Shown in pieces: positions 1-9,502 of a stretch of DNA of 13,727 nucleotides (positions are counted from its first letter, which is position 1; the number at the start of each line of letters is the position of its first letter). The position numbers and the translations under genes were made by a program. Source of the DNA: Minisyncoccota bacterium (GTDB lineage: Bacteria; Patescibacteriota; Microgenomatia; UBA1400; PJMF01); NCBI GenBank assembly GCA_014728425.1, contig WJLO01000047.1:1-13727 (forward strand), given 5' to 3'. Under the pieces are notes generated by a model. The model had not been told where the DNA came from and did no database searches. It saw only the letters and a list, made by a program, of their open reading frames with translations.

Positions 1-1311
1 GTAATAAACAGCATCCTTGTGAACCACTTCAGGCACTTGGTAAGATTTTCGACCAGGGACATTGATTGTCACAAGTTCGCGCTGATAGCTAGTGCCTCTA
101 AAAATTCTTTCAACAATCCAAGCAGCTACATTCATGTTCGGATCAATTTTATCTAAACCATATTGACAAAGTGTGTTATAGATCTGTTGAATAGAGTACT
201 GAGCATGTAATTGGCCATGCTCATCTGTTTCAGTTTGCATTGCTAAGTGAATAGCATAGTTTCTAGCAGCTAAAACTAATTGACGTTGATGTCCGCGAGG
301 CTCACCTAGCAATAATTCCATGAAAGAAGCTCCCCCCTCTTCATCAGCTAGATATTCAGCACATCCCAATCTGGCAAATATAAATCGTTGTAGTTCTCCA
401 TTGCCAGCACGTAAAACGTGGAATCCCTCATGAGCCAACAACACGCCTAGTCTATCGATGGAAAAAGTTGTGTTTTTAGGCAGCTTGACTTCTTTTGATT
501 TAGCTCTAACGCTTGCAGATGAACTGTCAACGCCTATTATTTGCCAGTCTTTAAATTGAGGTGAACGATTTAACCAGGCTTGAATTAGTTTTTTTGCTTG
601 AAAAAAATTTAGTTCTGTTAAAGTGTGGTCAATATTATGTAACTCAACAGCAGTTAGCTCGTCAGGTTTAAAACGAAATTTGTCAAGTAGCTCGCCCAGA
701 TTAGAGAACCAAATTGGTGCTCCTCCTTCTCTCGCAATTTCTAATTCTTCCTTAGCTTGCTGGGCATAGCGAGTTGCTAATTGTTTTTGATTACTAAAAT
801 CTAGCACCTGGGGGTAGGACCTCAATATCATTTCTCTAGTAAATTCTGACCGACCAACATGTTTTAATGTTTCAGCAGCGTCAATAATCTTATTGATTTT
901 TTTCTCATATTCCTGTTTTAATAATTGAGGCAGATCTACTTCTTTAAGCCTCTCAAGTATTTGTTTAGCCTGATTGATAATTTCTGCTAATTTATTTTTT
1001 TGATGGTTAGCTTTTTTTTCTTGTTGTGAATCTGTAAGCTGATCCGTTTCTGCATGAAGCACATAAATTTCATTCAAAGGTTTGCCTCTTAGATAATCAT
1101 CAGCATTGCCGGCCTCTAATGCTTTGGTCAAGTCTTGAAGAAAATCAGGCAACCTTGCTGCGCCGGAAATAAGACCATAGTTTTTATCAGGAGTGAGTCT
1201 ATTTAATTCTTGTTCTAAAGCTGTTAACTGATCCCAATCCAGAGATTCTCTTTTTCCTCCAGCACGTTCTCTTTCTTCTATGAACTTAATTGTTGCTTCA
1301 GTGTCTAGCAT
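1..1311 (-). CDS. DUF1704/MATCAP-like zinc peptidase, HExxH variant (partial, runs off left edge)
   Basis: My translation of the minus strand from the ATG at 1311 stays open for 437 codons to the window edge, so the C-terminus is missing. Residues 1-230 are helical and charged. The catalytic region has H294-E295-G-F-H298 followed by V-L-R, then E324-E325-G-G-A, the counterpart of the family's (Q/E)EGLA motif. Further on are F404-R-G and K432-D433 near a Tyr pair, which match the FRG and KD positions of DUF1704 proteins. The family contains zincin-like metallopeptidases, and its eukaryotic members (MATCAP) remove C-terminal residues from tubulin. DUF1704 proteins usually carry HExxxH, but this one has HExxH, one residue shorter. 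The gene starts 6 bases after the stop of the upstream GNAT-like gene, with AGGT (1323-1320) as a plausible ribosome-binding site, so it is probably the distal gene of the operon. No signal peptide or membrane helix is visible. Family assignment is fairly sure; substrate is unknown. Confidence 0.8.
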   Translation of the reverse strand, partial: MLDTEATIKFIEERERAGGKRESLDWDQLTALEQELNRLTPDKNYGLISGAARLPDFLQDLTKALEAGNADDYLRGKPLNEIYVLHAETDQLTDSQQEKKANHQKNKLAEIINQAKQILERLKEVDLPQLLKQEYEKKINKIIDAAETLKHVGRSEFTREMILRSYPQVLDFSNQKQLATRYAQQAKEELEIAREGGAPIWFSNLGELLDKFRFKPDELTAVELHNIDHTLTELNFFQAKKLIQAWLNRSPQFKDWQIIGVDSSSASVRAKSKEVKLPKNTTFSIDRLGVLLAHEGFHVLRAGNGELQRFIFARLGCAEYLADEEGGASFMELLLGEPRGHQRQLVLAARNYAIHLAMQTETDEHGQLHAQYSIQQIYNTLCQYGLDKIDPNMNVAAWIVERIFRGTSYQRELVTINVPGRKSYQVPEVVHKDAVYY

Positions 1312-1317
1312 GAGTGA

Positions 1318-2214
1318 TTACCTGTTTAACCTTTTTAAAAATTGGTCCCTCTGTTTATTTAAAGCAGCAAAATCAGTGCAGGCAATATTATTAATGTCTT
1401 TAGTGGTATATTTTGGCTTGATTTTTGCAGGTTGCTGGTCAGTGATGATTAAGTAACCAACTTGATTATTGTGAATAGTGGTAAAAATTACATCAGAAAG
1501 AAAGATTTTTGGTTTTAAAATAAACATAGTTTGCCAGTTTTCGGTAGGGTAAGCATTAAAGCCATAACGAGCTTTAAACTCAAACAAGCCAATTTTGCTA
1601 ATCAGGCCCACAGGGTTAAAGCATCGTCGGCCATGCATGATAGTAGTGAGCTGGTGTTGATAGCAAAAATCAAGGAGTTCAATTTCTAATAACCCACCAT
1701 AACCACCCCTAAGTTGATTGTTTTTAGTTTTAGCACCTAAACTTACCAAAGCAGTTTTTTTTCTGACAATAAAAGCCAAGCCAGCTACTAATTGATCAGC
1801 TTGGTAAATTCCACTTAAATAAATTTTAGCACCAACCAAAACTTTGCTAAGAATTGCTCTTTTAGGACTATCATTTAAGGCTCGTTGGCGGTTTAGGGTG
1901 GTTTTTTTAAAAAGTTGATCAAACTGTTTAAAAGATTGTTGGTCAAAAAGTTTTGTGTTGATTTGATAGCCCTGTGACAGTAGCTTTTTTTTGTTTTTGA
2001 TTAAATGCTTACGCTCTCTTTTAGAGCGAATAAAGGCTAAAGCATCATTAGCTGAGGCAAGATTGCCCACCCAAATCATTCTTTTGGAGTGATAAATGCC
2101 TCCTGGCACATAGCCATTGAAATATAATAAATCAGCTTGGCTAATTTCATCTAGGTTAGCATCTTTTGGGCGATCAAACCTAGCAATAGTGTAATCAAAT
2201 TTTTTAGTTAGCAT
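1318..2214 (-). CDS. GNAT/FemAB-like acyl- or aminoacyltransferase
   Basis: This 298-residue protein has no signal peptide. The centre looks like the GNAT-fold domain of FemAB-type and Acetyltransf_6 proteins: a lysine/arginine-rich helix (about 63-80), a strand pair around 141-160 (LVAGLAFIV, then TALVSLGAK), a glycine loop (R169-G-G-Y-G-G174), a helix (175-187), and G209-LFEFKARYGF near 218, resembling the 'GLxxFKxxFG' end of FemAB domains. FemAB proteins move amino acids from aminoacyl-tRNA to amino groups of peptidoglycan; relatives acylate other amines. Which donor is used cannot be read from the sequence. The last 70 residues match no motif I recognise. The ATG at 2214 follows a purine-rich stretch. 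The frame stays open 22 codons upstream but contains no ATG, GTG or TTG, so this is the first usable start. The gene lies 108 bases after one DUF1704 gene and 6 bases before another. Fold assignment is moderate; function is unknown. Confidence 0.7.
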   Translation of the reverse strand: MLTKKFDYTIARFDRPKDANLDEISQADLLYFNGYVPGGIYHSKRMIWVGNLASANDALAFIRSKRERKHLIKNKKKLLSQGYQINTKLFDQQSFKQFDQLFKKTTLNRQRALNDSPKRAILSKVLVGAKIYLSGIYQADQLVAGLAFIVRKKTALVSLGAKTKNNQLRGGYGGLLEIELLDFCYQHQLTTIMHGRRCFNPVGLISKIGLFEFKARYGFNAYPTENWQTMFILKPKIFLSDVIFTTIHNNQVGYLIITDQQPAKIKPKYTTKDINNIACTDFAALNKQRDQFLKRLNR

Positions 2215-2322
2215 TAAAGCTTTCTTTTGACACTTAATTAGTTTATACGCAAGCTGGTCTGGTAAATAGCTTAACTTTTCTCATCAAGTAGGCATGTGAG
2301 CATCAAGGTTATTTTCAACTTG

Positions 2323-3312
2323 TTAATTATCAACTGTTAATGATAGTTGGTCAAGTTGGTTAATTGTCCCGATTTTTACTAATCTTTCTCGATAACCAAC
2401 CCGATTCCGTTGAAAAAATCTCGGCAGTTTTGGCCTAAAAGTAGGCTTCATTGCAATTGCTTTTTCTATATCTTCTAGGGCCATTTTACCAAAGTATAAA
2501 GTAGTAGGGTTAAATTGATGTTTTTGAAGATATTGCCAAACTGTTACTAAACCTTCCAAATAAAGAATGTCTTTGGTAAAGCCACCTGGCTGACTAGTGT
2601 TAGTTAAACCGCGCTTACGCCTAACTGCAAAGATCCATCTTTTATCTGGGTCGTCAATATAAGGAGTAAGAAACTGCCATAATTGGGTAAAAGAGTTTTG
2701 TTGAGCGTGCTGTACTGCTAAATAGGCCAAGGCAGTTTTGCGGGCCAATTTAAAATCACGGGGAATTAACGAATGCAAGCTAGCTAAACCTTCTTCGGTT
2801 TTTAAATAATTGCTAAAACCGTGCTTTTTCTTTTTTTTGTACCAAGGTTGTTGTTCATAATTAACTCTGCGCAAAGCATGAGTACCGATTTCATGATATA
2901 AAGCACCAGTTAATTGTTGCTCACGAAGATTAAAGGGTTGACGTAGTTTAATGGTGTTTTTATTAATCGAGATCATGCTTAAGAAATCTGCAGACCATTT
3001 GATTTGAAAACGGGCTGCTAAACCATGAACTTGTAAAAAATCTTTAATACGTTGATGAGCTTGTGGTTGCGAGATTTTTTTACCAAAAGTTTTTAAGATT
3101 TCGCTTTCATTGCGATCATGGTAAGCTCGGTCAATGATTTCTTGAGCTAAGTCAAGATATTTTTGTTTGGGTAAGCCATACTGTTGAGCTAATTGCTGAG
3201 TATCAATCTTTTTAGCATAACTTAATTGAGGTTGATAATTAAAATCAGCAGCAAAAAACTTGGCTTTTTCTTGTTGCAAGTTAGTTGGTATTAAGTCGCG
3301 AACTTTAATCAT
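2323..3312 (-). CDS. DUF1704 (MATCAP/QEGLA family) zinc metallopeptidase
   Basis: This protein of about 329 residues has the full DUF1704 signature (numbered from the TTG codon just upstream; subtract 1 for the ATG start). It has H141-E-I-G-T-H146 as the HExxxH zinc motif and E174-E-G-L-A178 as the family motif with a further glutamate. R226-W..RRKRG and F246-T-K-D249-x-x-Y follow, matching the FRG...KD.xY region. In eukaryotes this family includes the MATCAP tubulin-tail peptidases; bacterial members are often annotated as 'flavohemoglobin expression-modulating QEGLA motif protein', with unclear function. All expected metal and catalytic positions appear present, so an active, probably cytoplasmic peptidase is likely. 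The ATG at 3312 shares one base with the TGA of the ATP-grasp gene (TGATG), which points to translational coupling. AAGGA (3320-3316) lies 3 bases upstream. A TTG at 3315 would add one residue and is less likely. The substrate may be the product of the adjacent ligase (inference). Confidence 0.88.
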   Translation of the reverse strand: MIKVRDLIPTNLQQEKAKFFAADFNYQPQLSYAKKIDTQQLAQQYGLPKQKYLDLAQEIIDRAYHDRNESEILKTFGKKISQPQAHQRIKDFLQVHGLAARFQIKWSADFLSMISINKNTIKLRQPFNLREQQLTGALYHEIGTHALRRVNYEQQPWYKKKKKHGFSNYLKTEEGLASLHSLIPRDFKLARKTALAYLAVQHAQQNSFTQLWQFLTPYIDDPDKRWIFAVRRKRGLTNTSQPGGFTKDILYLEGLVTVWQYLQKHQFNPTTLYFGKMALEDIEKAIAMKPTFRPKLPRFFQRNRVGYRERLVKIGTINQLDQLSLTVDN

Positions 3313-4598
3313 CAATCCTTAATGCCTACTAAAAATCCTGGCAAGTCTTTGCGACCAAGCTCAAGTTTATGGCTGCGGCGGTTAAGTTTTTTAGAAACCA
3401 GCATGGTGGTTTCTAGCTGGCGGTCTTTTAGTTGAAAAGCAACTTCTACTACTGGCACTTTACCCTCACCCTGCTCTTGCTGAAACCAGAGTAGGTCATC
3501 TAGATCAATCAAGCCTAGTTCTTCTGCTAGTTGGCTAGCAATAGCACTGCGATATCTACCAGTATTGATTAAAGCTGGAGCAATTCTCTCTTGGCGGTCT
3601 TCGCCAAAGACTGTTAGTTCCTCTCTTGGCTCTACAATAGCCAAGCCTTCTTTAGCTTTGATTTTGTCAGCAAAGCTTTCGGCAAATAGGGCTTGACCAA
3701 TGCGCACTCCATGATCGTCATTTAAGACATTAAGATCTGCTACTCGTTGTAGCCGGCGCCTGAGTCCTGCCTGATTAGCAATCTGAATTGATAAGCCAGG
3801 CTGGGAGTTTAACTCTACCACCATCGGCCCTTTGTCTTTATGAATAAATAGATCAATGCCAGCATAAACCAACTCAGCTGCCTCTGCTGCTTGCACAGCA
3901 GTTTTAAGCAACTGATTCCAAAAAGGAATTTTAATACCATTAAGTTTTTTTTTGGTGCCAGGTAAGTACTGGATTAATTGAGTTTTATGAGCTGCAGCAT
4001 AAGTGGTAATGCCAGTGGCAATATCAATACCAACGCCAATGGCTCCTTGACTTTGATTGGCTCGTCCTTCAGATTCTTTAGTTGGCAATCTTAACAAGGC
4101 CATCACTGGAACTTTGTTAAAGACAATTACTCGGATATCTGGAGTACCTTTATAAGTATATTTTAATAATTTGGGATGAATCGGCACTCGCTCTTCTACA
4201 ATAATATGATGACGAGAACCATGGGTGCTGTATTGACCTTCTAAAATGTCATAGCAATGTAGTTTGAGATCAGCTAGACTCCAAACCCGACCAACCACAT
4301 CGGTCCAGTGTTGTTGATCAGCATGCTGTTTTTTAAAAGCAATAATTCCCTTACCAGCATGACCATTGGTGGGTTTGATAACAAAGTTTTCAGCCATTTT
4401 ATGCCAAGGAAAATCATTAACATCTTCTTGAGTAGCTAGCACTCCATAAACTTCAGCAGTGGCAATGTTTTGATTAGTAAGTAAGACTTTGGTAGCATAT
4501 TTAGACTTGCAAATACTTTTTGCTTTAGCAGAATTCAGGCTTAAATATAATTGATTTCGGGCGTTCATGCCCAAAATCTCACTCGGCTTGGTCGTCAT
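3312..4598 (-). CDS. RimK-like ATP-grasp ligase (alpha-L-glutamate ligase-like) fused to a retropepsin-like domain
   Basis: This 428-residue protein opens with S-E-I-L-G-M-N-x-R-N (6-15), the hallmark start of the 'alpha-L-glutamate ligase-like' ATP-grasp family (TIGR02291 type). ATP-grasp motifs follow: V73-I-K-P76, the glycine loop G79-H-A-G-K-G84, D154-I-R-V157, and the metal-binding E262-L-N-S-Q-P-G268. Such enzymes join an amino acid to a carboxylate through an acyl phosphate, using ATP. Residues about 325-428 form a second domain like the RimB/PF05618 retropepsin-like proteases: a turn at 345-347 followed by RYRSAI, a strand P382-VVEVAFQL, and a closing L414-GRKDLPGFLV. Where D-T-G is expected the sequence reads N345-T-G (codon AAT), so the domain is probably not an active aspartic protease. 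The gene overlaps the upstream 7TM gene by 20 bases and the downstream peptidase by 1 base, a strong sign of one operon. An internal ATG at 4568 would delete the conserved start. The amino acid added and the acceptor are unknown. Confidence 0.87.
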   Translation of the reverse strand: MTTKPSEILGMNARNQLYLSLNSAKAKSICKSKYATKVLLTNQNIATAEVYGVLATQEDVNDFPWHKMAENFVIKPTNGHAGKGIIAFKKQHADQQHWTDVVGRVWSLADLKLHCYDILEGQYSTHGSRHHIIVEERVPIHPKLLKYTYKGTPDIRVIVFNKVPVMALLRLPTKESEGRANQSQGAIGVGIDIATGITTYAAAHKTQLIQYLPGTKKKLNGIKIPFWNQLLKTAVQAAEAAELVYAGIDLFIHKDKGPMVVELNSQPGLSIQIANQAGLRRRLQRVADLNVLNDDHGVRIGQALFAESFADKIKAKEGLAIVEPREELTVFGEDRQERIAPALINTGRYRSAIASQLAEELGLIDLDDLLWFQQEQGEGKVPVVEVAFQLKDRQLETTMLVSKKLNRRSHKLELGRKDLPGFLVGIKD

Positions 4599-5562
4599 GG
4601 TAGTGATCGTGGCTAGTAATATTGGGGCTAAAAACCGAGCTAAATCGCAGATATTCTAACAGTCTCAAACCAGTGTAACGAGCAGTTAAGTAGTTAATCA
4701 CTGCAGTGCCCAACAAGGTGATTTCTGGTCTGAGGAGAACAAATTTTTGCACTGCAGTTAAGCTAATAAACATGGCGCATAAAACCGCAATTAACAAGGT
4801 TTCAATGGTGAGTTTGGTAGCCTCTTTTTGACTGTTAAATAGCTGTGAGGTAATAAAGTTTTCTGTAAGTAAAATGATAATTAATAAAGGAAAAATACTA
4901 ACACTAATCAGTGAGGTTAAGTTGTAATAAGCTGCACCTATTAACAACAACAATGTAAAGATCGACACCCCCCAGAGCAGCATGGCGGTCCGAGGCAAGT
5001 AAGGCAAGCGTAGTTTTTTGATTACTTTACGAGTGGCTAGGGCTGCTAGTAAAACTGCTGAAAAAATAATTACTCCATTAACGATCTCAGTTGACACAAA
5101 AGCCACTGACAATACTGCTGGAATATAAATACCAAAGCCCCGCAACCCTATTACATGGCGCGAAACTGCAATTACAGAAGCGATCAAAGGAAATAAAATC
5201 ATCAAAACCACAATGTTGGCAGGCAGTCCTTTTTCAATAGCCCTGCGAATAGCATGCTGTAAAAAATTATGCCAAGAAGGCGATTCTACTGGATGTTGAT
5301 CTAGATAAGCTACTAGCTCGCTTTTTTTCTCTCCAGTGGTCTCGGTAATGTCTTGGGCCTTTTTTTCTTGAATTTTTTGTTCTACTTCTGCTGAGGCTGA
5401 AGCTAAGCTGCCAGATTCAGTAGCAGTAGGGCTGGCTGGAGCAGTGGTTGGCGTGGATGTGGGGCTAGGTTGTAGGCGTTGAGCTTGCGCCATAGGGGCA
5501 ATGATATAGCAGAGACTCAAACTTAGACAACTTAAGCTAATCAGAATTAGTTTTTTGCTCAT
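4579..5562 (-). CDS. Membrane protein of the 7TM_transglut family, lacking the transglutaminase domain
   Basis: This 327-residue protein starts with a signal peptide (about 1-27, ending A-Q-A). A Ser/Thr/Pro-rich stretch (32-50) and a charged helix (about 56-90) follow, probably outside the membrane. From residue 110 on there are six or seven hydrophobic segments (about 114-134, 142-160, 162-178, 192-212, 217-236, 252-272, 275-294). Motifs resemble the 7TM domain usually fused to an inactive transglutaminase (PF14402): L114-P...VVLMILFPL, V137-I-G-L-R-G-F-G144, T249-K-L-T-I-E-T and R295-Y-T-G-L-R-L. The transglutaminase part is absent; only about 80 linker residues lie between signal peptide and helices. 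The C-terminal tail is rich in His and Asp (318-325). These proteins are commonly encoded beside the ATP-grasp ligase found here, and the two genes overlap by 20 bases. A transport or scaffold role for the ligase product is inference. The ATG at 5562 lies about 42 bases from the predicted transcription start. Confidence 0.85.
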   Translation of the reverse strand: MSKKLILISLSCLSLSLCYIIAPMAQAQRLQPSPTSTPTTAPASPTATESGSLASASAEVEQKIQEKKAQDITETTGEKKSELVAYLDQHPVESPSWHNFLQHAIRRAIEKGLPANIVVLMILFPLIASVIAVSRHVIGLRGFGIYIPAVLSVAFVSTEIVNGVIIFSAVLLAALATRKVIKKLRLPYLPRTAMLLWGVSIFTLLLLIGAAYYNLTSLISVSIFPLLIIILLTENFITSQLFNSQKEATKLTIETLLIAVLCAMFISLTAVQKFVLLRPEITLLGTAVINYLTARYTGLRLLEYLRFSSVFSPNITSHDHYHDDQAE

Positions 5563-5610
5563 TTGGTCTTTAAGTTATGTTGATGATATAGCAGTTTATG
5601 CCACCATCCT

Positions 5611-5640
5611 ATTATACTCTTTTTTACTAAGATACTCCAA
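5611..5640 (-). promoter_or_regulatory. Candidate sigma70-type promoter of the 7TM/ATP-grasp/DUF1704 operon
   Basis: On the minus strand a perfect TATAAT (5616-5611) is preceded, after 18 bases, by TTGGAG (5640-5635), which keeps only the TTG of the -35 consensus. Predicted transcription starts near 5604, about 42 bases before the 7TM start codon. It lies in the 129-base gap after the holin-like gene, and no other gap down to 2323 could hold a promoter, so it probably drives the operon. Confidence 0.5.
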
Positions 5641-5691
5641 TTAGTTAGATTTTTCTCAAGTTTAATGTTGATTCTACTGTATTGCTAAAAA

Positions 5692-6054
5692 TTATAAAAA
5701 CCAACCGATTGCTGATTGAAGCAAGCTGATCAAAAAGGAAACAAGTAGTAAAGAAAAGAAAAAATTTAGTTCAAGGCCAAAAATCGTCATTGGTTGAATC
5801 TGAAAGCCAGGTACTAAATAAGTAGCCAGCCAAAGTAAGGCCACATTAATCACTAAAGAAAACAGTCCCAAAGTAACGATGTTAATGGGTAAAAATAGCA
5901 GTTTTAACACAGGTTTGGCGATTTTCTGCAGCAAGGTTAAGACAATGCTGGCTAAGATTAAGCTAGTCCAGTTTAAGTAGCTAACTGTTGGCAAAGCCCA
6001 GGCTAGAATGACAATAGTTAAACCGCTGATTAAGATTGGTTTTAAGATTTTCAT
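5692..6054 (-). CDS. Small four-helix membrane protein, phage holin family 4 (PF04020) type
   Basis: This 120-residue protein is almost entirely hydrophobic, with four predicted membrane helices (about 7-27, 30-48, 57-80, 93-117). It carries the conserved block of the family: K47-P-V-L-K-L-L-F-L-P, then N58-I-V-T-L-G-L-F and N70-V-A-L, ending at P82-G-F. Members are widespread in bacterial chromosomes and are labelled 'phage holin family protein' because of superfamily similarity. No lytic function is shown for most of them, and no phage gene is nearby. The ATG at 6054 is the start; upstream lies a 160-base spacer with palindromes and a possible promoter, so it may be transcribed on its own. 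The physiological role is unknown. Confidence 0.85.
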   Translation of the reverse strand: MKILKPILISGLTIVILAWALPTVSYLNWTSLILASIVLTLLQKIAKPVLKLLFLPINIVTLGLFSLVINVALLWLATYLVPGFQIQPMTIFGLELNFFFSLLLVSFLISLLQSAIGWFL

Positions 6055-6214: not shown

Positions 6215-7615
6215 TTAATCTTTTAAGAACTGTTTAGCACGAAGTTTATGATGTTGTTTTTGGGCAAAGCGATGTGACTCGTCACGTAGATGTTGGATTA
6301 ACTGTAAACTAGGATGATTACTAGCAAGCTTAATAATTTGATAATTAATTTTCAATCTTTTACTGCGGTCAATTTGAGTAGGAATGATTAAACGATCTGG
6401 ATTTTTAGCAATGCTAATGATTGGTTGTGGACCTTGCCAGACTTTTAGCACTGCCCTAAGCTGGCCTTTGCCACCATCAATTACTAGCAAATTAGGTTTA
6501 CCCCATTCTGGATGTTGTTGACGGCGACTAATAGCTTCTTGCAACATGTAATAGTCATTAGGCTGTTGTGGCCCGCGAATGTTAAACAAGCGGTAATGCT
6601 TTTTAGCTGGTTGGCCTTGAATAAAAACCACCATTGATACTGCAGCTGCTTGACCTTGAAGGTTGCTAACATCATATCCCTCTAATCGATTAAGAGGATA
6701 TTTTTTTGGCAAGTTTAAATAACTAGTGAGCATTCTTCTTAGATGAAGCAAGGCTGCTTGAGTTTTGTTTTGACTAAAGCTGGGTAAAATCAGCTCTGGC
6801 TTAAGACGATAGTTTTTACTAGTGACTAGCCTGATAAGCTGAATTTGGTTACGCACTTGAGCAGCTTGTTCAAAGCGTTGTTCTTTGGCAAGCTGATGCA
6901 TTTTTTGCTGAAGTTGGTTTAAAACGGTTTTTTTCTTACCTTGTAAAAACAAGACTAGGGCTTTGATGTTGGCTTGGTAATCTTGAGGAGAGATTTTGTT
7001 AATACAGGCTCCTGGGCAGAGATCAAGATGGTAGTAAAAGCAAGCACGAGCAGTAGCTGAGTTGCTATCAACTGACTCAGCTTGGTTGCACCAAGGGAAA
7101 ATCGGGCGCACTAGCTTAAGGACTTCTTTAAGCTTGGTGGCACTCGGAAACGGTCCCAAGATGGTGCCTTGGGTCTGCTTGGCTGGTAAACGATAAAGCT
7201 GTTTTTTTCTTAAAGTTTTTAAACTGGGATAAGGTTGATCAGTGACTTGTAAATATAAAGGACTACGATCGTCTTTAAGCAGAATGTTGTAAGCAGGTTG
7301 ATGCAACCGAATTAACTCTGCTTCGATCAACAAAGCTTCTAGTTCACTAGCCAGGACCTGGTATTTAAGCTTGCTGGTTTGGCTAAGCATTTTTTGTTGA
7401 CGAGGCAGCAGACGTTTAGTCTGAGTATAACTATGCAAGCGACGACGAAGGTTTTTGGCCTTGCCTACGTATAAAACTTTATGAGCGGCGTTTAAGAATG
7501 AGTAAACTCCCGGCTGTGAGGGGCACAAGGATAAAGCTGGCGGCCAGGATAGCGAGCCCGACTGGTTGGCTAAAAAGTTGTTGGAGCTTGGCTTGGCTGG
7601 TGATCTTGAGTTCAT
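6215..7615 (-). CDS. uvrC: UvrABC excinuclease subunit C, compact form without (HhH)2 domain
   Basis: UvrC makes both incisions around a lesion held by UvrB. Numbering is from the GTG at 7633; subtract 6 for the ATG at 7615. The GIY-YIG nuclease begins at P41-G-V-Y and Y55-V-G-K-A-K, with the catalytic Glu in the E98-L-E-A-L-L-I-E104 region. Four cysteines (C182, C198, C206, C210; last spacings x7 and x3) match the Fe-S cysteines of UvrC. A UVR domain (about 237-271) contacts UvrB. The RNase H-like nuclease has D321 (G-Y-D-V-S-N), D386 (V-I-D-G-G-K-G) and H454 (R-D-E-S-H). The protein ends 18 residues later, where other UvrCs continue into tandem helix-hairpin-helix motifs. The segment between UVR and D321 is also about 80-100 residues shorter than in E. 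coli UvrC (610 aa). Start choice is uncertain: GTG 7633, ATG 7615 or TTG 7528. All overlap the upstream transglutaminase gene. Confidence 0.92.
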   Translation of the reverse strand: MNSRSPAKPSSNNFLANQSGSLSWPPALSLCPSQPGVYSFLNAAHKVLYVGKAKNLRRRLHSYTQTKRLLPRQQKMLSQTSKLKYQVLASELEALLIEAELIRLHQPAYNILLKDDRSPLYLQVTDQPYPSLKTLRKKQLYRLPAKQTQGTILGPFPSATKLKEVLKLVRPIFPWCNQAESVDSNSATARACFYYHLDLCPGACINKISPQDYQANIKALVLFLQGKKKTVLNQLQQKMHQLAKEQRFEQAAQVRNQIQLIRLVTSKNYRLKPELILPSFSQNKTQAALLHLRRMLTSYLNLPKKYPLNRLEGYDVSNLQGQAAAVSMVVFIQGQPAKKHYRLFNIRGPQQPNDYYMLQEAISRRQQHPEWGKPNLLVIDGGKGQLRAVLKVWQGPQPIISIAKNPDRLIIPTQIDRSKRLKINYQIIKLASNHPSLQLIQHLRDESHRFAQKQHHKLRAKQFLKD

Positions 7616-9380
7616 GTTGTTGACTATGAGCACTGGTTTTAATAGTTAAATTTACCGAATTAGTGGTTGGCCAGGTTTGCTGTTCATTATAACTGCTTAA
7701 AGGAATGGTTAAAGTTTCAAAAGGCAGGATCATCTTAAGTTGATAATGAGTTGATTTTCCGTCTGAATGAGCTTTTAGTTTGTCTTGGTTTAGCTTTAGT
7801 TTTAATGATTGATTAGGGTTTTGCCAATCAAACCAAAGATCTAGTTCATACCAAGCTTGACCAGTATGATTTTGTAAAGTTAAGAGATACGAACCCGGTA
7901 TGCTCCAACCAGCAATTTTTTTACTGGTTAGTTGAACACTCAGTTGTGGTGACACTTGATCAAACTGATCAGTGAACTCTGCTTCAATATCTTTGGTTTC
8001 GCCGCCATTAAGCTTGTAGGCTCCAGCTGGTAGAGGTAAGGTGCTATCTTGACCATTAATAGCAAAAACTACGTGGTTAAGATCAAACTGGTTAAAGTAA
8101 TCTACTCCTTTAGTAGTATGACCCCAAGTAGGATCAATATTAACCCAAGTGTTTTGTTGTTGTTGATAATATTGCGGCCAGGTATGCAACACATCTTTAA
8201 CTAAGCTTAAGGGTCTTAAACTACTGTTTTCAGCATAAGCATAACCAGTGATTCTGCGAGCTGGAATATGTTGGGCTCTAGCTAAAGTGACAAATAAATC
8301 AGTAAATTCTTGACAGGTAGCCTGATTGGGTTGAGCTAAGGCTTTTAAAGCTCCTAAGCGCTTAATGCCTTGACTTAGATCAGCAGTAGTGTATTGCAAA
8401 GTGTTAACAGTATATTGATAAATACTTTGAGCATTGGCCTGTTGCTCAGCAATGGTTTTAATGGCTGAGTCATTAACTGGCCAGTATTGATCTGCCTGGG
8501 TATGGTTAGGCAAGACTGGATTAACAGGAATGTGTGGATTGGCTGTTAAAGTACGTTTCACTTGTACTGCTAAGTTAACTTCAAGATTGCTATTGGCAGC
8601 TAAACGATAAGTAGCAATCCAGTTACCATCAGCATCAGCTGCGATTTTACTAGGCAATGGGTCTAAGGCCTGATAGTTAACGCGTTGATAAGGAGTATCT
8701 GGAATCAAACTAATTTGGGTTAGAGCCTGTTGATTAGTGGGGTTTTCTAAATGATAACGTAAATTAAAGTGAAAAAACTGCTCAGTGCCAAAGATTGCAG
8801 AGATGCCTTGTTTTTGCAGGTTAGTAAATTGAGTAGTAATGGCTGTGTTGTTTTGTTGGAGTTGGTAGTTGCTTGGGGTAACTCGAGTTGGTGGGCCAAA
8901 CCTAGCTGGGGTGGTTAAATTGACTGTATATTGTTGGTAAGCTTCGGGGTTAGTTTGTTGAGGAATCACTACTTCTAAAACCTGGCCGCTAATAATGGCA
9001 ACATCAGGATTTTGGTAGGAAATACTAAATTGACGTTGCTTACCCTCCCCTACTAACTCATTAGCAAAAGTAATCCCAATACTAGTATAGCCATTAGCCT
9101 TGACAATTTCTGGTTTAATGATTTGGTCTTGATCAACAACATGAATATTAGTTAAGTTTTCTGAACCGATTTTGAGGCCATATTTATTTAAATAAGTAGT
9201 GGCAGTAAGATTGGTAATGGTAAACTGATGTTCTACATAAGCTTGGCCTTGATCATTAATCGTATAGTTAGTGTGTAAATCAAGTTGAAAGGGCTGTTCT
9301 TGAGCGGCAAAAACAGGCCAAACTAGCAGTTGGAGACTGATCAGCAAACTGCCAATAAGAGCAAAAAACTTATGCTGCAT
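7479..9380 (-). CDS. Exported, membrane-anchored transglutaminase-like cysteine protein
   Basis: This protein of about 633 residues has a signal peptide (1-26, ending F-A-A before Q), a long beta-rich extracellular region (about 30-300), a transglutaminase-like core (about 315-440), a second beta-rich region (about 465-590) and one C-terminal membrane helix (about 606-628) followed by K-R-R-S. The core carries a complete Cys-His-Asp triad: C356 in A-T-C-Q-E-F, H399 in V-L-H-T-W and D416 in N-I-D-P-T-W. Such proteins act outside the membrane as cysteine peptidases or cross-linking enzymes; the substrate is unknown. The ATG at 9380 is chosen because the signal peptide begins there; a GTG at 9431 would add 17 residues and lies upstream of the likely promoter. 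The last 137 bases overlap the 5' end of uvrC in another frame. The 'repair' location between uvrA and uvrC probably reflects position rather than function. Confidence 0.85.
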   Translation of the reverse strand: MQHKFFALIGSLLISLQLLVWPVFAAQEQPFQLDLHTNYTINDQGQAYVEHQFTITNLTATTYLNKYGLKIGSENLTNIHVVDQDQIIKPEIVKANGYTSIGITFANELVGEGKQRQFSISYQNPDVAIISGQVLEVVIPQQTNPEAYQQYTVNLTTPARFGPPTRVTPSNYQLQQNNTAITTQFTNLQKQGISAIFGTEQFFHFNLRYHLENPTNQQALTQISLIPDTPYQRVNYQALDPLPSKIAADADGNWIATYRLAANSNLEVNLAVQVKRTLTANPHIPVNPVLPNHTQADQYWPVNDSAIKTIAEQQANAQSIYQYTVNTLQYTTADLSQGIKRLGALKALAQPNQATCQEFTDLFVTLARAQHIPARRITGYAYAENSSLRPLSLVKDVLHTWPQYYQQQQNTWVNIDPTWGHTTKGVDYFNQFDLNHVVFAINGQDSTLPLPAGAYKLNGGETKDIEAEFTDQFDQVSPQLSVQLTSKKIAGWSIPGSYLLTLQNHTGQAWYELDLWFDWQNPNQSLKLKLNQDKLKAHSDGKSTHYQLKMILPFETLTIPLSSYNEQQTWPTTNSVNLTIKTSAHSQQHELKITSQAKLQQLFSQPVGLAILAASFILVPLTAGSLLILKRRS

Positions 9381-9396
9381 TAGGATTATTTTAGCA

Positions 9397-9424
9397 CTTA
9401 TAAGCAACTTTGCATGTTGTTCAA
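9397..9424 (-). promoter_or_regulatory. Candidate promoter of the transglutaminase-like gene
   Basis: The minus strand has TTGAAC (9424-9419), a 16-base spacer and TATAAG (9402-9397). The -10 box matches five of six consensus positions and the -35 box keeps TTGA. Transcription would start near 9390, leaving a leader of only about 10 bases before the ATG at 9380. uvrC, which overlaps this gene's end, would probably share the transcript. Confidence 0.4.
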
Positions 9425-9502
9425 CAATCACACTACAGAAGAGTGTTAATCAGCTGGCTTAAAAAATTTAGATTAACAAAATTTTAGTAAGTAATTTTTT
9501 TG

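What the first reader, a model, noticed from the sequence alone, without database searches (positions are those of the whole stretch)
1..5640. Five-gene operon pairing an ATP-grasp ligase and a FemAB/GNAT-like transferase with two DUF1704 peptidases and a 7TM membrane protein
Seen: five co-oriented genes with overlaps of 20 and 1 bases and gaps of 108 and 6 bases, behind one candidate promoter. Known: RimK-type ATP-grasp enzymes make amide bonds, FemAB-type GNATs can transfer amino acids, and the DUF1704 family includes the MATCAP tubulin-tail peptidases. Inference: the operon encodes a system that adds and removes amino acids on a peptide or protein tail or on an envelope component, an analogue of tubulin-tail ligation (TTL is also ATP-grasp) and removal by MATCAP. 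Two peptidases plus a GNAT in the same operon is more than the ligase/7TM pair I recall.
Basis: partly seen in the sequence, partly recalled or inferred. Interest (0 to 1): 0.75.

Follow-up and report, generated by a model that had tools for sequence, protein, structure and literature searches.

The report
Amide-ligase and peptidase envelope module
A tiny-genome bacterium carries a conserved membrane protein, an amide-bond-making enzyme and a peptidase related to the human enzyme that trims tubulin tails; in many related bacteria the peptidase sits beside the ligase or is fused to it, apparently where the ligase's own built-in protease has lost its active site.

Summary
The five co-oriented genes are there as described (7TM, ATP-grasp, MATCAP/DUF1704, FemAB-like GNAT, second MATCAP cut by the contig end), in a Microgenomates (Pacebacteria-like) Patescibacterium. 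The conserved module is smaller than five genes. The 7TM gene is directly upstream of the ATP-grasp in 126 of 130 core loci. MATCAP is a recurrent third partner: of 51 phylum genomes with both families, 45 have them within 10 kb (about 1 expected), and in 18 loci from 10 families ligase and MATCAP are one clean ORF. The FemAB-like gene and second MATCAP are variable cargo (5 and 4 of 89 genomes). The core ligase also carries a C-terminal RloA/RimB-type retropepsin domain, whose D(T/S)G motif is intact in 59 of 63 loci without linked MATCAP but lost in 58 of 67 with linked or fused MATCAP; few independent events underlie this and the sign test is not significant. I read it as a Rim/Rlo-type ligase-peptidase system at the membrane in which MATCAP replaced the retropepsin as trimmer, probably acting on an envelope peptide or polyamide. 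Substrate and product are inferred, not shown.

The parts
4579..5562 (-). 7TM_transglut membrane protein (RloB-like 7TM, 327 aa); N-terminal signal/anchor-like segment, Pro/Thr-rich linker, no transglutaminase domain found
   Evidence: PF14402 5e-26, residues 117-310; hydropathy; AF2 pLDDT 75
3312..4598 (-). core ATP-grasp ligase, 428 aa, RimK/RloC-like
   Evidence: PF14397 3e-63, RimK 2e-12; TIGR02291 250.6 bits, below its cut-off of 314
3741..4559 (-). ATP-grasp domain (residues 14-286)
   Evidence: coordinates
3327..3623 (-). C-terminal retropepsin-like (RimB/RloA) domain, residues about 326-424
   Evidence: profile A3 positions 339-430 match 9g59 'ATP-dependent zinc protease' 2e-5, and 335-426 DDI1; PF05618 in the same ORF of relatives; no PF05618 match in this gene itself
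3558..3566 (-). degenerate catalytic motif: NTG (residues 345-347) where retropepsins have DTG
2323..3315 (-). MATCAP/DUF1704 metallopeptidase, 330 aa (329 from the ATG), no hydrophobic N-terminal segment
   Evidence: PF08014 9.6e-30; human MATCAP 7z5g 1.8e-47; hydropathy
2878..2895 (-). HEIGTH (HExxxH) zinc motif of gene 3; EEGLA at 2782-2796
1318..2214 (-). FemAB/aminoacyl-tRNA-transferase-like tandem-GNAT protein, 298 aa
1..1311 (-). second, divergent MATCAP-family protein (HEGFH, an HExxH variant), truncated by the contig end
   Evidence: PF08014 2.3e-14; no MATCAP match in PDB sequences; motif
2326..2354 (-). promoter-like site (10 of 12) ahead of the FemAB-like gene; not above chance
5692..6054 (-). 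small holin-4_2-like membrane protein, usually next to the 7TM gene in the window's family; membership of the module uncertain
   Evidence: PF04020 1.6e-20

Best explanation
A membrane-associated amide-ligase/peptidase module related to the Rim and Rlo systems. The cytoplasmic ATP-grasp enzyme adds amino acids (glutamate-like, by homology) through amide bonds to an acceptor. The 7TM protein is its constant membrane partner and probably hands over, anchors or exports the product at the cell envelope. The ligase has a built-in retropepsin-type domain that in relatives should trim the chain; in the window's lineage that site is dead (DTG to NTG) and the adjacent soluble MATCAP metallopeptidase has taken over trimming. 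Some genomes add further ATP-grasp ligases or FemAB-type aminoacyl transferases to the same locus, which would change the composition of the product; here that cargo is one FemAB-like gene and a second MATCAP. Shown: domains, conserved adjacency, fusions, loss of the retropepsin motif. Inferred: the chemistry, the direction of trimming, export, and that the product is an envelope peptide or polyamide.
For: 7TM directly upstream of the core ligase in 72 of 74 (relatives) and 54 of 56 (rest of phylum) loci. MATCAP and 7TM: both in 51 of 286 genomes, within 10 kb in 45 of those 51 (33 on one strand within 5 kb), about 1 expected if placed at random in 1 Mb. ATP-grasp + MATCAP in one ORF in 19 of 56 phylum loci, 18 of them free of masked bases, 10 families; Pfam confirms both domains in 3 of 3 tested. 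Retropepsin domain by profile and Pfam in relatives. D(T/S)G intact in 59 of 63 unlinked cores, lost in 58 of 67 with a linked or fused MATCAP, while an HExxxH pattern is present in 77 of 79 proteins with a MATCAP match over 60 bits. Accessory ATP-grasp genes in the downstream run in 28 of 74 and 25 of 56 loci. Published: RimB removes poly-Glu made by RimK, and its catalytic Asp is essential (PMC11957791, passages); in Pseudomonas loss of RloB or RloC suppresses loss of the RloA peptidases, fully for hypo-osmotic growth and partly for other traits (PMC12239564, passages); human TMCPs are also deglutamylases (PMC10499314, passages).
Against: The motif-loss correlation rests on few events: the broken state needs 6 changes on the tree and lies mainly in three clades; the independent-pairs sign test is not significant (median p 0.5, range 0.5-1). 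In the divergent fused proteins 'lost' depends on the alignment. Nine linked loci keep D(T/S)G (two of them, L074 and L075, linked to a longer MATCAP-like family that Pfam does not recognise), and nine more intact cores have a MATCAP within 8 kb outside a same-strand run, e.g. f41 genomes with it on the other strand. Most loci titled Woesebacteria or Shapirobacteria have no MATCAP in the stretch held. Six genomes with both families have them apart. Substrate, acceptor and export are not shown by any search. The 7TM model has no PDB match, so transport is a guess.
Confidence: 0.55

Rival explanations
1. Peptidoglycan editing: ligases and FemAB-like enzymes build or modify stem or bridge peptides, MATCAP trims them, and the 7TM protein is a lipid-II-proximal partner.
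For: FemX/MprF-like fold. Two relatives of the window's FemAB-like gene, L255 and L256, lie near a gene I read as glutamate racemase (MurI, by sequence), with a PF02388 FemAB gene also in L255. In 5 of 5 f33 loci with a called core (L133-L135, L137, L138) a protein of about 940-955 aa that I read as PBP1-like directly follows the core. Rlo mutants have cell-shape and ampicillin phenotypes (PMC12239564, passages).
Against: Core and accessory ligases are RimK-like or general ATP-grasp by Pfam, not Mur ligases; a cytosolic MATCAP would act on precursors only; the association with PG genes is patchy.
Confidence: 0.2
2. Cytosolic protein-tail modification as in RimK/RpsF or TTL/MATCAP tubulin: ligase adds, MATCAP removes residues on a protein C-terminus, and the 7TM protein is only an anchor.
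For: Gene 3 is close to human MATCAP; RimK-like ligase; no hydrophobic N-terminal segment on the enzymes.
Against: The 7TM gene is as constant as the ligase and in two tested proteins from other classes bears a PKD domain (PKD being usually extracellular is recalled), which points to the envelope. I saw no candidate target protein recurring in the loci.
Confidence: 0.2
3. Graspetide-type RiPP locus: the ATP-grasp genes macrocyclise a small precursor peptide and the MATCAPs mature it.
For: CPR graspetide loci with zincin peptidases have been predicted (PMC8939145, passages and part 1 of 3 of section 6).
Against: No small ORF of 25 aa or more on the coding strand in the gaps at 2215-2322 or 5563-5691. 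The term DUF1704 does not occur in that paper's main text. The core's retropepsin domain and fused MATCAPs fit poly-amino-acid trimming better.
Confidence: 0.08
4. Mere neighbourhood: 7TM + ligase is one system; MATCAP, FemAB-like and second MATCAP are unrelated passengers.
For: FemAB-like and second MATCAP are rare (5 and 4 of 89); the best promoter-like site lies at the end of gene 3, ahead of gene 2, though not above chance; in six genomes 7TM and MATCAP are apart.
Against: For MATCAP gene 3 excluded in practice by ATP-grasp-MATCAP fusions in 10 families.
Confidence: 0.1

Closest known systems
RloABC of Pseudomonas aeruginosa (PMC12239564)
   Same: 7TM_transglut membrane protein + ATP-grasp + a peptidase able to cleave poly-Glu in one operon
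   Different: Here no transglutaminase domain; the retropepsin is fused to the ligase and is degenerate; the peptidase is a MATCAP without signal peptide instead of a secreted retropepsin; host is a Patescibacterium (that paper reports 96% of RloB hits in Proteobacteria)
RimK/RimB and the RimBK hybrid (PMC11957791)
   Same: RimK-like ATP-grasp with a RimB-like aspartic protease domain in one protein
   Different: Domain order reversed (RimBK has RimB at the N-terminus), TIGR02291-like rather than RimK proper, constant 7TM partner, MATCAP partner
MATCAP/TMCP and TTL tubulin-tail enzymes
   Same: Gene 3 is homologous to human MATCAP over residues 8-326 and has HExxxH
   Different: Bacterial; the ligase is RimK-like and TTL (PF03133) is only a sub-threshold match; tubulin as substrate is not suggested
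QEGLA / N-formylglutamate amidohydrolase / ATP-grasp clusters of Proteobacteria (Aminobacter plasmid L254)
   Same: DUF1704 peptidase next to a glutathione-synthetase-like gene and FGase (one Patescibacterial cassette, L054, also has FGase)
   Different: No 7TM gene annotated in that stretch; its QEGLA protein is far from human MATCAP (14.8 bits) while gene 3 is near (165 bits)
FemABX, MprF and Sbb17-type aminoacyl-tRNA-dependent transferases
   Same: Predicted tandem-GNAT fold of gene 2
   Different: No sequence match to PF02388 or any Pfam family

Membership tests
RloABC system | 7TM_transglut domain protein next to an ATP-grasp gene | tested here: met
RloABC system | RloB with inactive transglutaminase domain (NF052267 over its cut-off) | tested here: not met
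   60.8 bits against a cut-off of 900; two longer Patescibacterial 7TM proteins tested carry PKD instead
RloABC system | Active, secreted retropepsin RloA | tested here: not met
   Domain present but fused to the ligase with NTG for DTG; no PF05618 hit in the window's 81%-complete genome
RimK-related alpha-L-glutamate ligase (TIGR02291) | Score over curated cut-off | tested here: not met
   250.6 against 314.2 bits; 0 of 286 phylum genomes passes it
ATPgrasp_ST (PF14397) | Score over gathering cut-off | tested here: met
   214 against 31 bits
Glutamate ligases | Uses L-glutamate | not testable with these tools
   needs enzymology
MATCAP (PF08014), gene 3 | Family score and HExxxH + downstream Glu | tested here: met
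   104 bits; HEIGTH and EEGLA; 7z5g 1.8e-47
MATCAP (PF08014), gene 1 | Family score and HExxxH | tested here: inconclusive
   53.6 bits, over the cut-off, but motif is HEGFH (HExxH) and the gene is truncated
QEGLA (TIGR02421) | Score over curated cut-off | tested here: not met
   97 (gene 3) and 41 bits (gene 1) against 339
FemABX | PF02388 sequence match | tested here: not met
   no Pfam hit up to E = 1
FemABX | FemX-like tandem-GNAT fold | tested here: met
Graspetide locus | Precursor peptide gene next to the ATP-grasp | tested here: not met
   no coding-strand small ORF of 25 aa or more in the two gaps; overlapping or distant precursors not tested

The most novel reading that the evidence does not exclude
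Patescibacteria carry a broadly distributed, modular system for a non-ribosomal peptide or polyamide coat: a fixed membrane + ligase core plus a variable cassette of ATP-grasp ligases, FemAB-type transferases and MATCAP peptidases that sets its composition, as capsule loci do for sugars. Within it MATCAP displaced a retropepsin as the trimming enzyme, and the eukaryotic tubulin-tail carboxypeptidase MATCAP descends from this bacterial ligase-partner peptidase.
Probability: 0.2. Interest if true: 0.85.

Novelty: new variant of a known kind. Interest (0 to 1): 0.62.

Why it matters
The surfaces of Patescibacteria (tiny, mostly uncultured, largely host-dependent bacteria) are poorly understood. 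A conserved membrane-ligase core in genomes of about 0.5-1.4 Mb is a candidate for a basic envelope function. The fusions and the decay of one protease where another is present give a testable prediction: retropepsins and MATCAPs act on the same ligase product. It also gives the human tubulin-tail peptidase a bacterial relative with a ligase partner, so its original substrate can be asked about directly.

Tried and rejected
Five-gene module as such: rejected; genes 1 and 2 are variable cargo. Operon proof from promoter or terminator scans: no signal above shuffles; the RNA fold of the 108-base gap and its edges is ordinary (z 0.41). A 7TM + ligase fusion in L247 was dropped because the ORF runs through masked bases; for the same reason L128 is left out of the 18 clean ligase-MATCAP fusions, though it stays in the motif table (without it: lost in 57 of 66 linked). 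7TM fold: 45 PDB matches at E <= 10, none at E <= 0.001. Profile A1 of the FemAB-like gene against PDB sequences: none up to E = 1. The plasmid collection gave 3 records for the ligase and 5 for MATCAP; I opened 4 of the 8 stretches and saw no triad annotated, but one has no features and in another the matched gene itself is not annotated. No search centred outside the phylum was run. Phylogenetically corrected test of motif loss against MATCAP linkage: not significant. Literature: Iyer et al. 2009 on amidoligases is not held, so I cannot say whether it describes parts of this. The searches listed no paper that by title or abstract start describes an ATP-grasp/MATCAP link in Patescibacteria; this is an open-licence library and several of those lists were capped.
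Full report
WHAT IS THERE. The window is the whole contig C27 of an 846-kb, 81%-complete genome. All five genes of the finding are on the minus strand with the stated gaps and overlaps. Upstream, also co-oriented, are a holin-4_2-like gene, uvrC, a transglutaminase-domain protein, uvrA and uvrB (uvrA and uvrB are named from the sequence, they were not scanned). The closest named relatives are mostly Candidatus Pacebacteria/Paceibacterota and other Microgenomates. Gene 1 is cut by the contig end.

CONSERVATION IN RELATIVES. Of 89 genomes (own included): ATP-grasp 79, 7TM 80, gene 3 51, gene 2 5, gene 1 4. In the window's family (42 genomes) gene 3 relatives are in 39, three of them away from the core (G002, G005, G023). 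I fetched stretches for 74 of the 79 ligase-bearing genomes and for 57 of the 79 7TM-bearing phylum genomes outside that set; 56 of the 57 gave a core under my gene caller, and one further stretch from a genome without a 7TM hit gave none. The 7TM gene is immediately upstream on the same strand in 72 of 74 and 54 of 56. Of the four exceptions one is a contig end (L110); in the other three (L073, L115, L121) my gene caller put another ORF there, while the searches place the 7TM hit beside the ligase. Downstream, in the same-strand run, lie accessory ATP-grasp genes (28 of 74; 25 of 56), MATCAP-family genes (43 of 74; 5 of 56, plus 19 fused) and FemAB-like genes (7 of 74, window included, two of them by a second profile that I did not verify; 0 of 56). 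Representatives of these cassettes carry distinct ATP-grasp families, N-formylglutamate amidohydrolase and DUF3541. In L227, L240 and L245 an accessory ATP-grasp is fused to a FemAB-like domain by my profile (Pfam sees only the ATP-grasp part of L240).

LINK TO MATCAP. Over 286 genomes of the phylum, 7TM is in 86, MATCAP in 63 (61 over the cut-off), both in 51; in 45 of the 51 they lie within 10 kb, about 1 expected by random placement in 1 Mb, and in 33 on one strand within 5 kb; six have them apart or on other contigs. In 19 loci of ten families ligase and MATCAP are one ORF, 18 without masked bases, 768-840 aa but for one of 1027 whose start is probably misread. For L111 Pfam gives ATPgrasp_ST 1.5e-69 and MATCAP 2.3e-60 in one protein. 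This is the strongest evidence that the two act together.

PROTEASE SWAP. Aligning 130 core ligases shows the retropepsin D(T/S)G motif intact in 59 of 63 without linked MATCAP, and lost in 58 of 67 with MATCAP in the run or fused (57 of 66 without the masked L128). The four broken, unlinked cases are a contig end (L050), two genomes with MATCAP elsewhere (L059, L066) and one where MATCAP is adjacent in another frame (L146). The nine intact, linked cases are L074, L075, L111, L116, L117, L125, L129, L130 and L166. Nine further intact cores have a MATCAP within 8 kb outside a same-strand run. On the ligase-domain tree (129 rows) the broken state needs six changes and lies mainly in three clades (44 rows with the window, 18 rows of mostly fused proteins, and L126/L127); the independent-pairs sign test has too few pairs (median p 0.5). 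The correlation is thus striking but rests on few origins. RimB D31E had no detectable activity in the time tested (PMC11957791, passages), so NTG is expected to be inactive.

MECHANISM. In Pseudomonas, Rim and Rlo pair an ATP-grasp with a retropepsin that can cleave poly-Glu; in Rlo the membrane protein is RloB, and loss of RloB or RloC suppresses loss of the peptidases (PMC12239564, passages). By analogy the window's ligase and 7TM protein build and place an amide-linked chain at the membrane and MATCAP trims it. Human TMCPs, also MATCAPs, remove glutamates (PMC10499314, passages). The FemAB-like gene may add an aminoacyl-tRNA-derived residue. Product, acceptor and export are not shown.

RIVALS. 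Peptidoglycan editing is the main rival: two relatives of gene 2 near a glutamate-racemase-like gene and a PBP1-like gene after the core in f33; both names are my reading of the sequence, not a family scan. Tail modification of a cytosolic protein remains possible. Graspetide loci are predicted in CPR (PMC8939145, passages and part of one section), but no precursor-like ORF lies in the gaps here.

NOVELTY. The 7TM/ATP-grasp pair, the RimBK hybrid and DUF1704 peptidases are known. What I did not find in the searches named under Tried and rejected is the ATP-grasp-retropepsin/MATCAP link, its fusions, the motif decay and the variable cassette in Patescibacteria. The 2009 amidoligase survey could not be read.

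Noticed in passing
window 7479-9431 (-): Transglutaminase-core protein with N-terminal and C-terminal hydrophobic segments, lying between uvrA and uvrC in many relatives of the window's family; RloB's transglutaminase domain is missing from the 7TM gene, so a link is conceivable.
   Followed up: partly
window 5692-6054 (-): Holin-4_2-like small membrane protein, usually directly upstream of the 7TM gene in the window's family.
   Followed up: partly
window 2323-3315 (-): Gene 3 is far closer to human MATCAP (165 bits) than the two proteobacterial QEGLA proteins tried are (27 and 14.8 bits), which raises the question of the origin of eukaryotic MATCAP.
   Followed up: partly
L133, L134, L135, L137, L138: In these f33 genomes a protein of about 940-955 aa, PBP1-like by reading, directly follows the core ligase, whose DTG motif is intact.
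   Followed up: no
L255:1986-3671, L256:3-2505: Two of the three closest relatives of the FemAB-like gene lie near a gene that reads as glutamate racemase, away from the core locus.
   Followed up: partly
L227, L240, L245: Accessory ATP-grasp fused to a FemAB-like domain in one protein of 777-794 aa directly after the core ligase.
   Followed up: partly
L116:6013-7578, L135:8928-10481: In two tested genomes of other Patescibacterial classes the 7TM protein carries an N-terminal PKD domain instead of a transglutaminase domain.
   Followed up: partly
L074, L075, L243: A longer protein family of 553-611 aa lies in or beside these cassettes; the L074 member has an HExxxH motif but Pfam does not recognise it, so I call it MATCAP-like only by motif.
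   Followed up: partly
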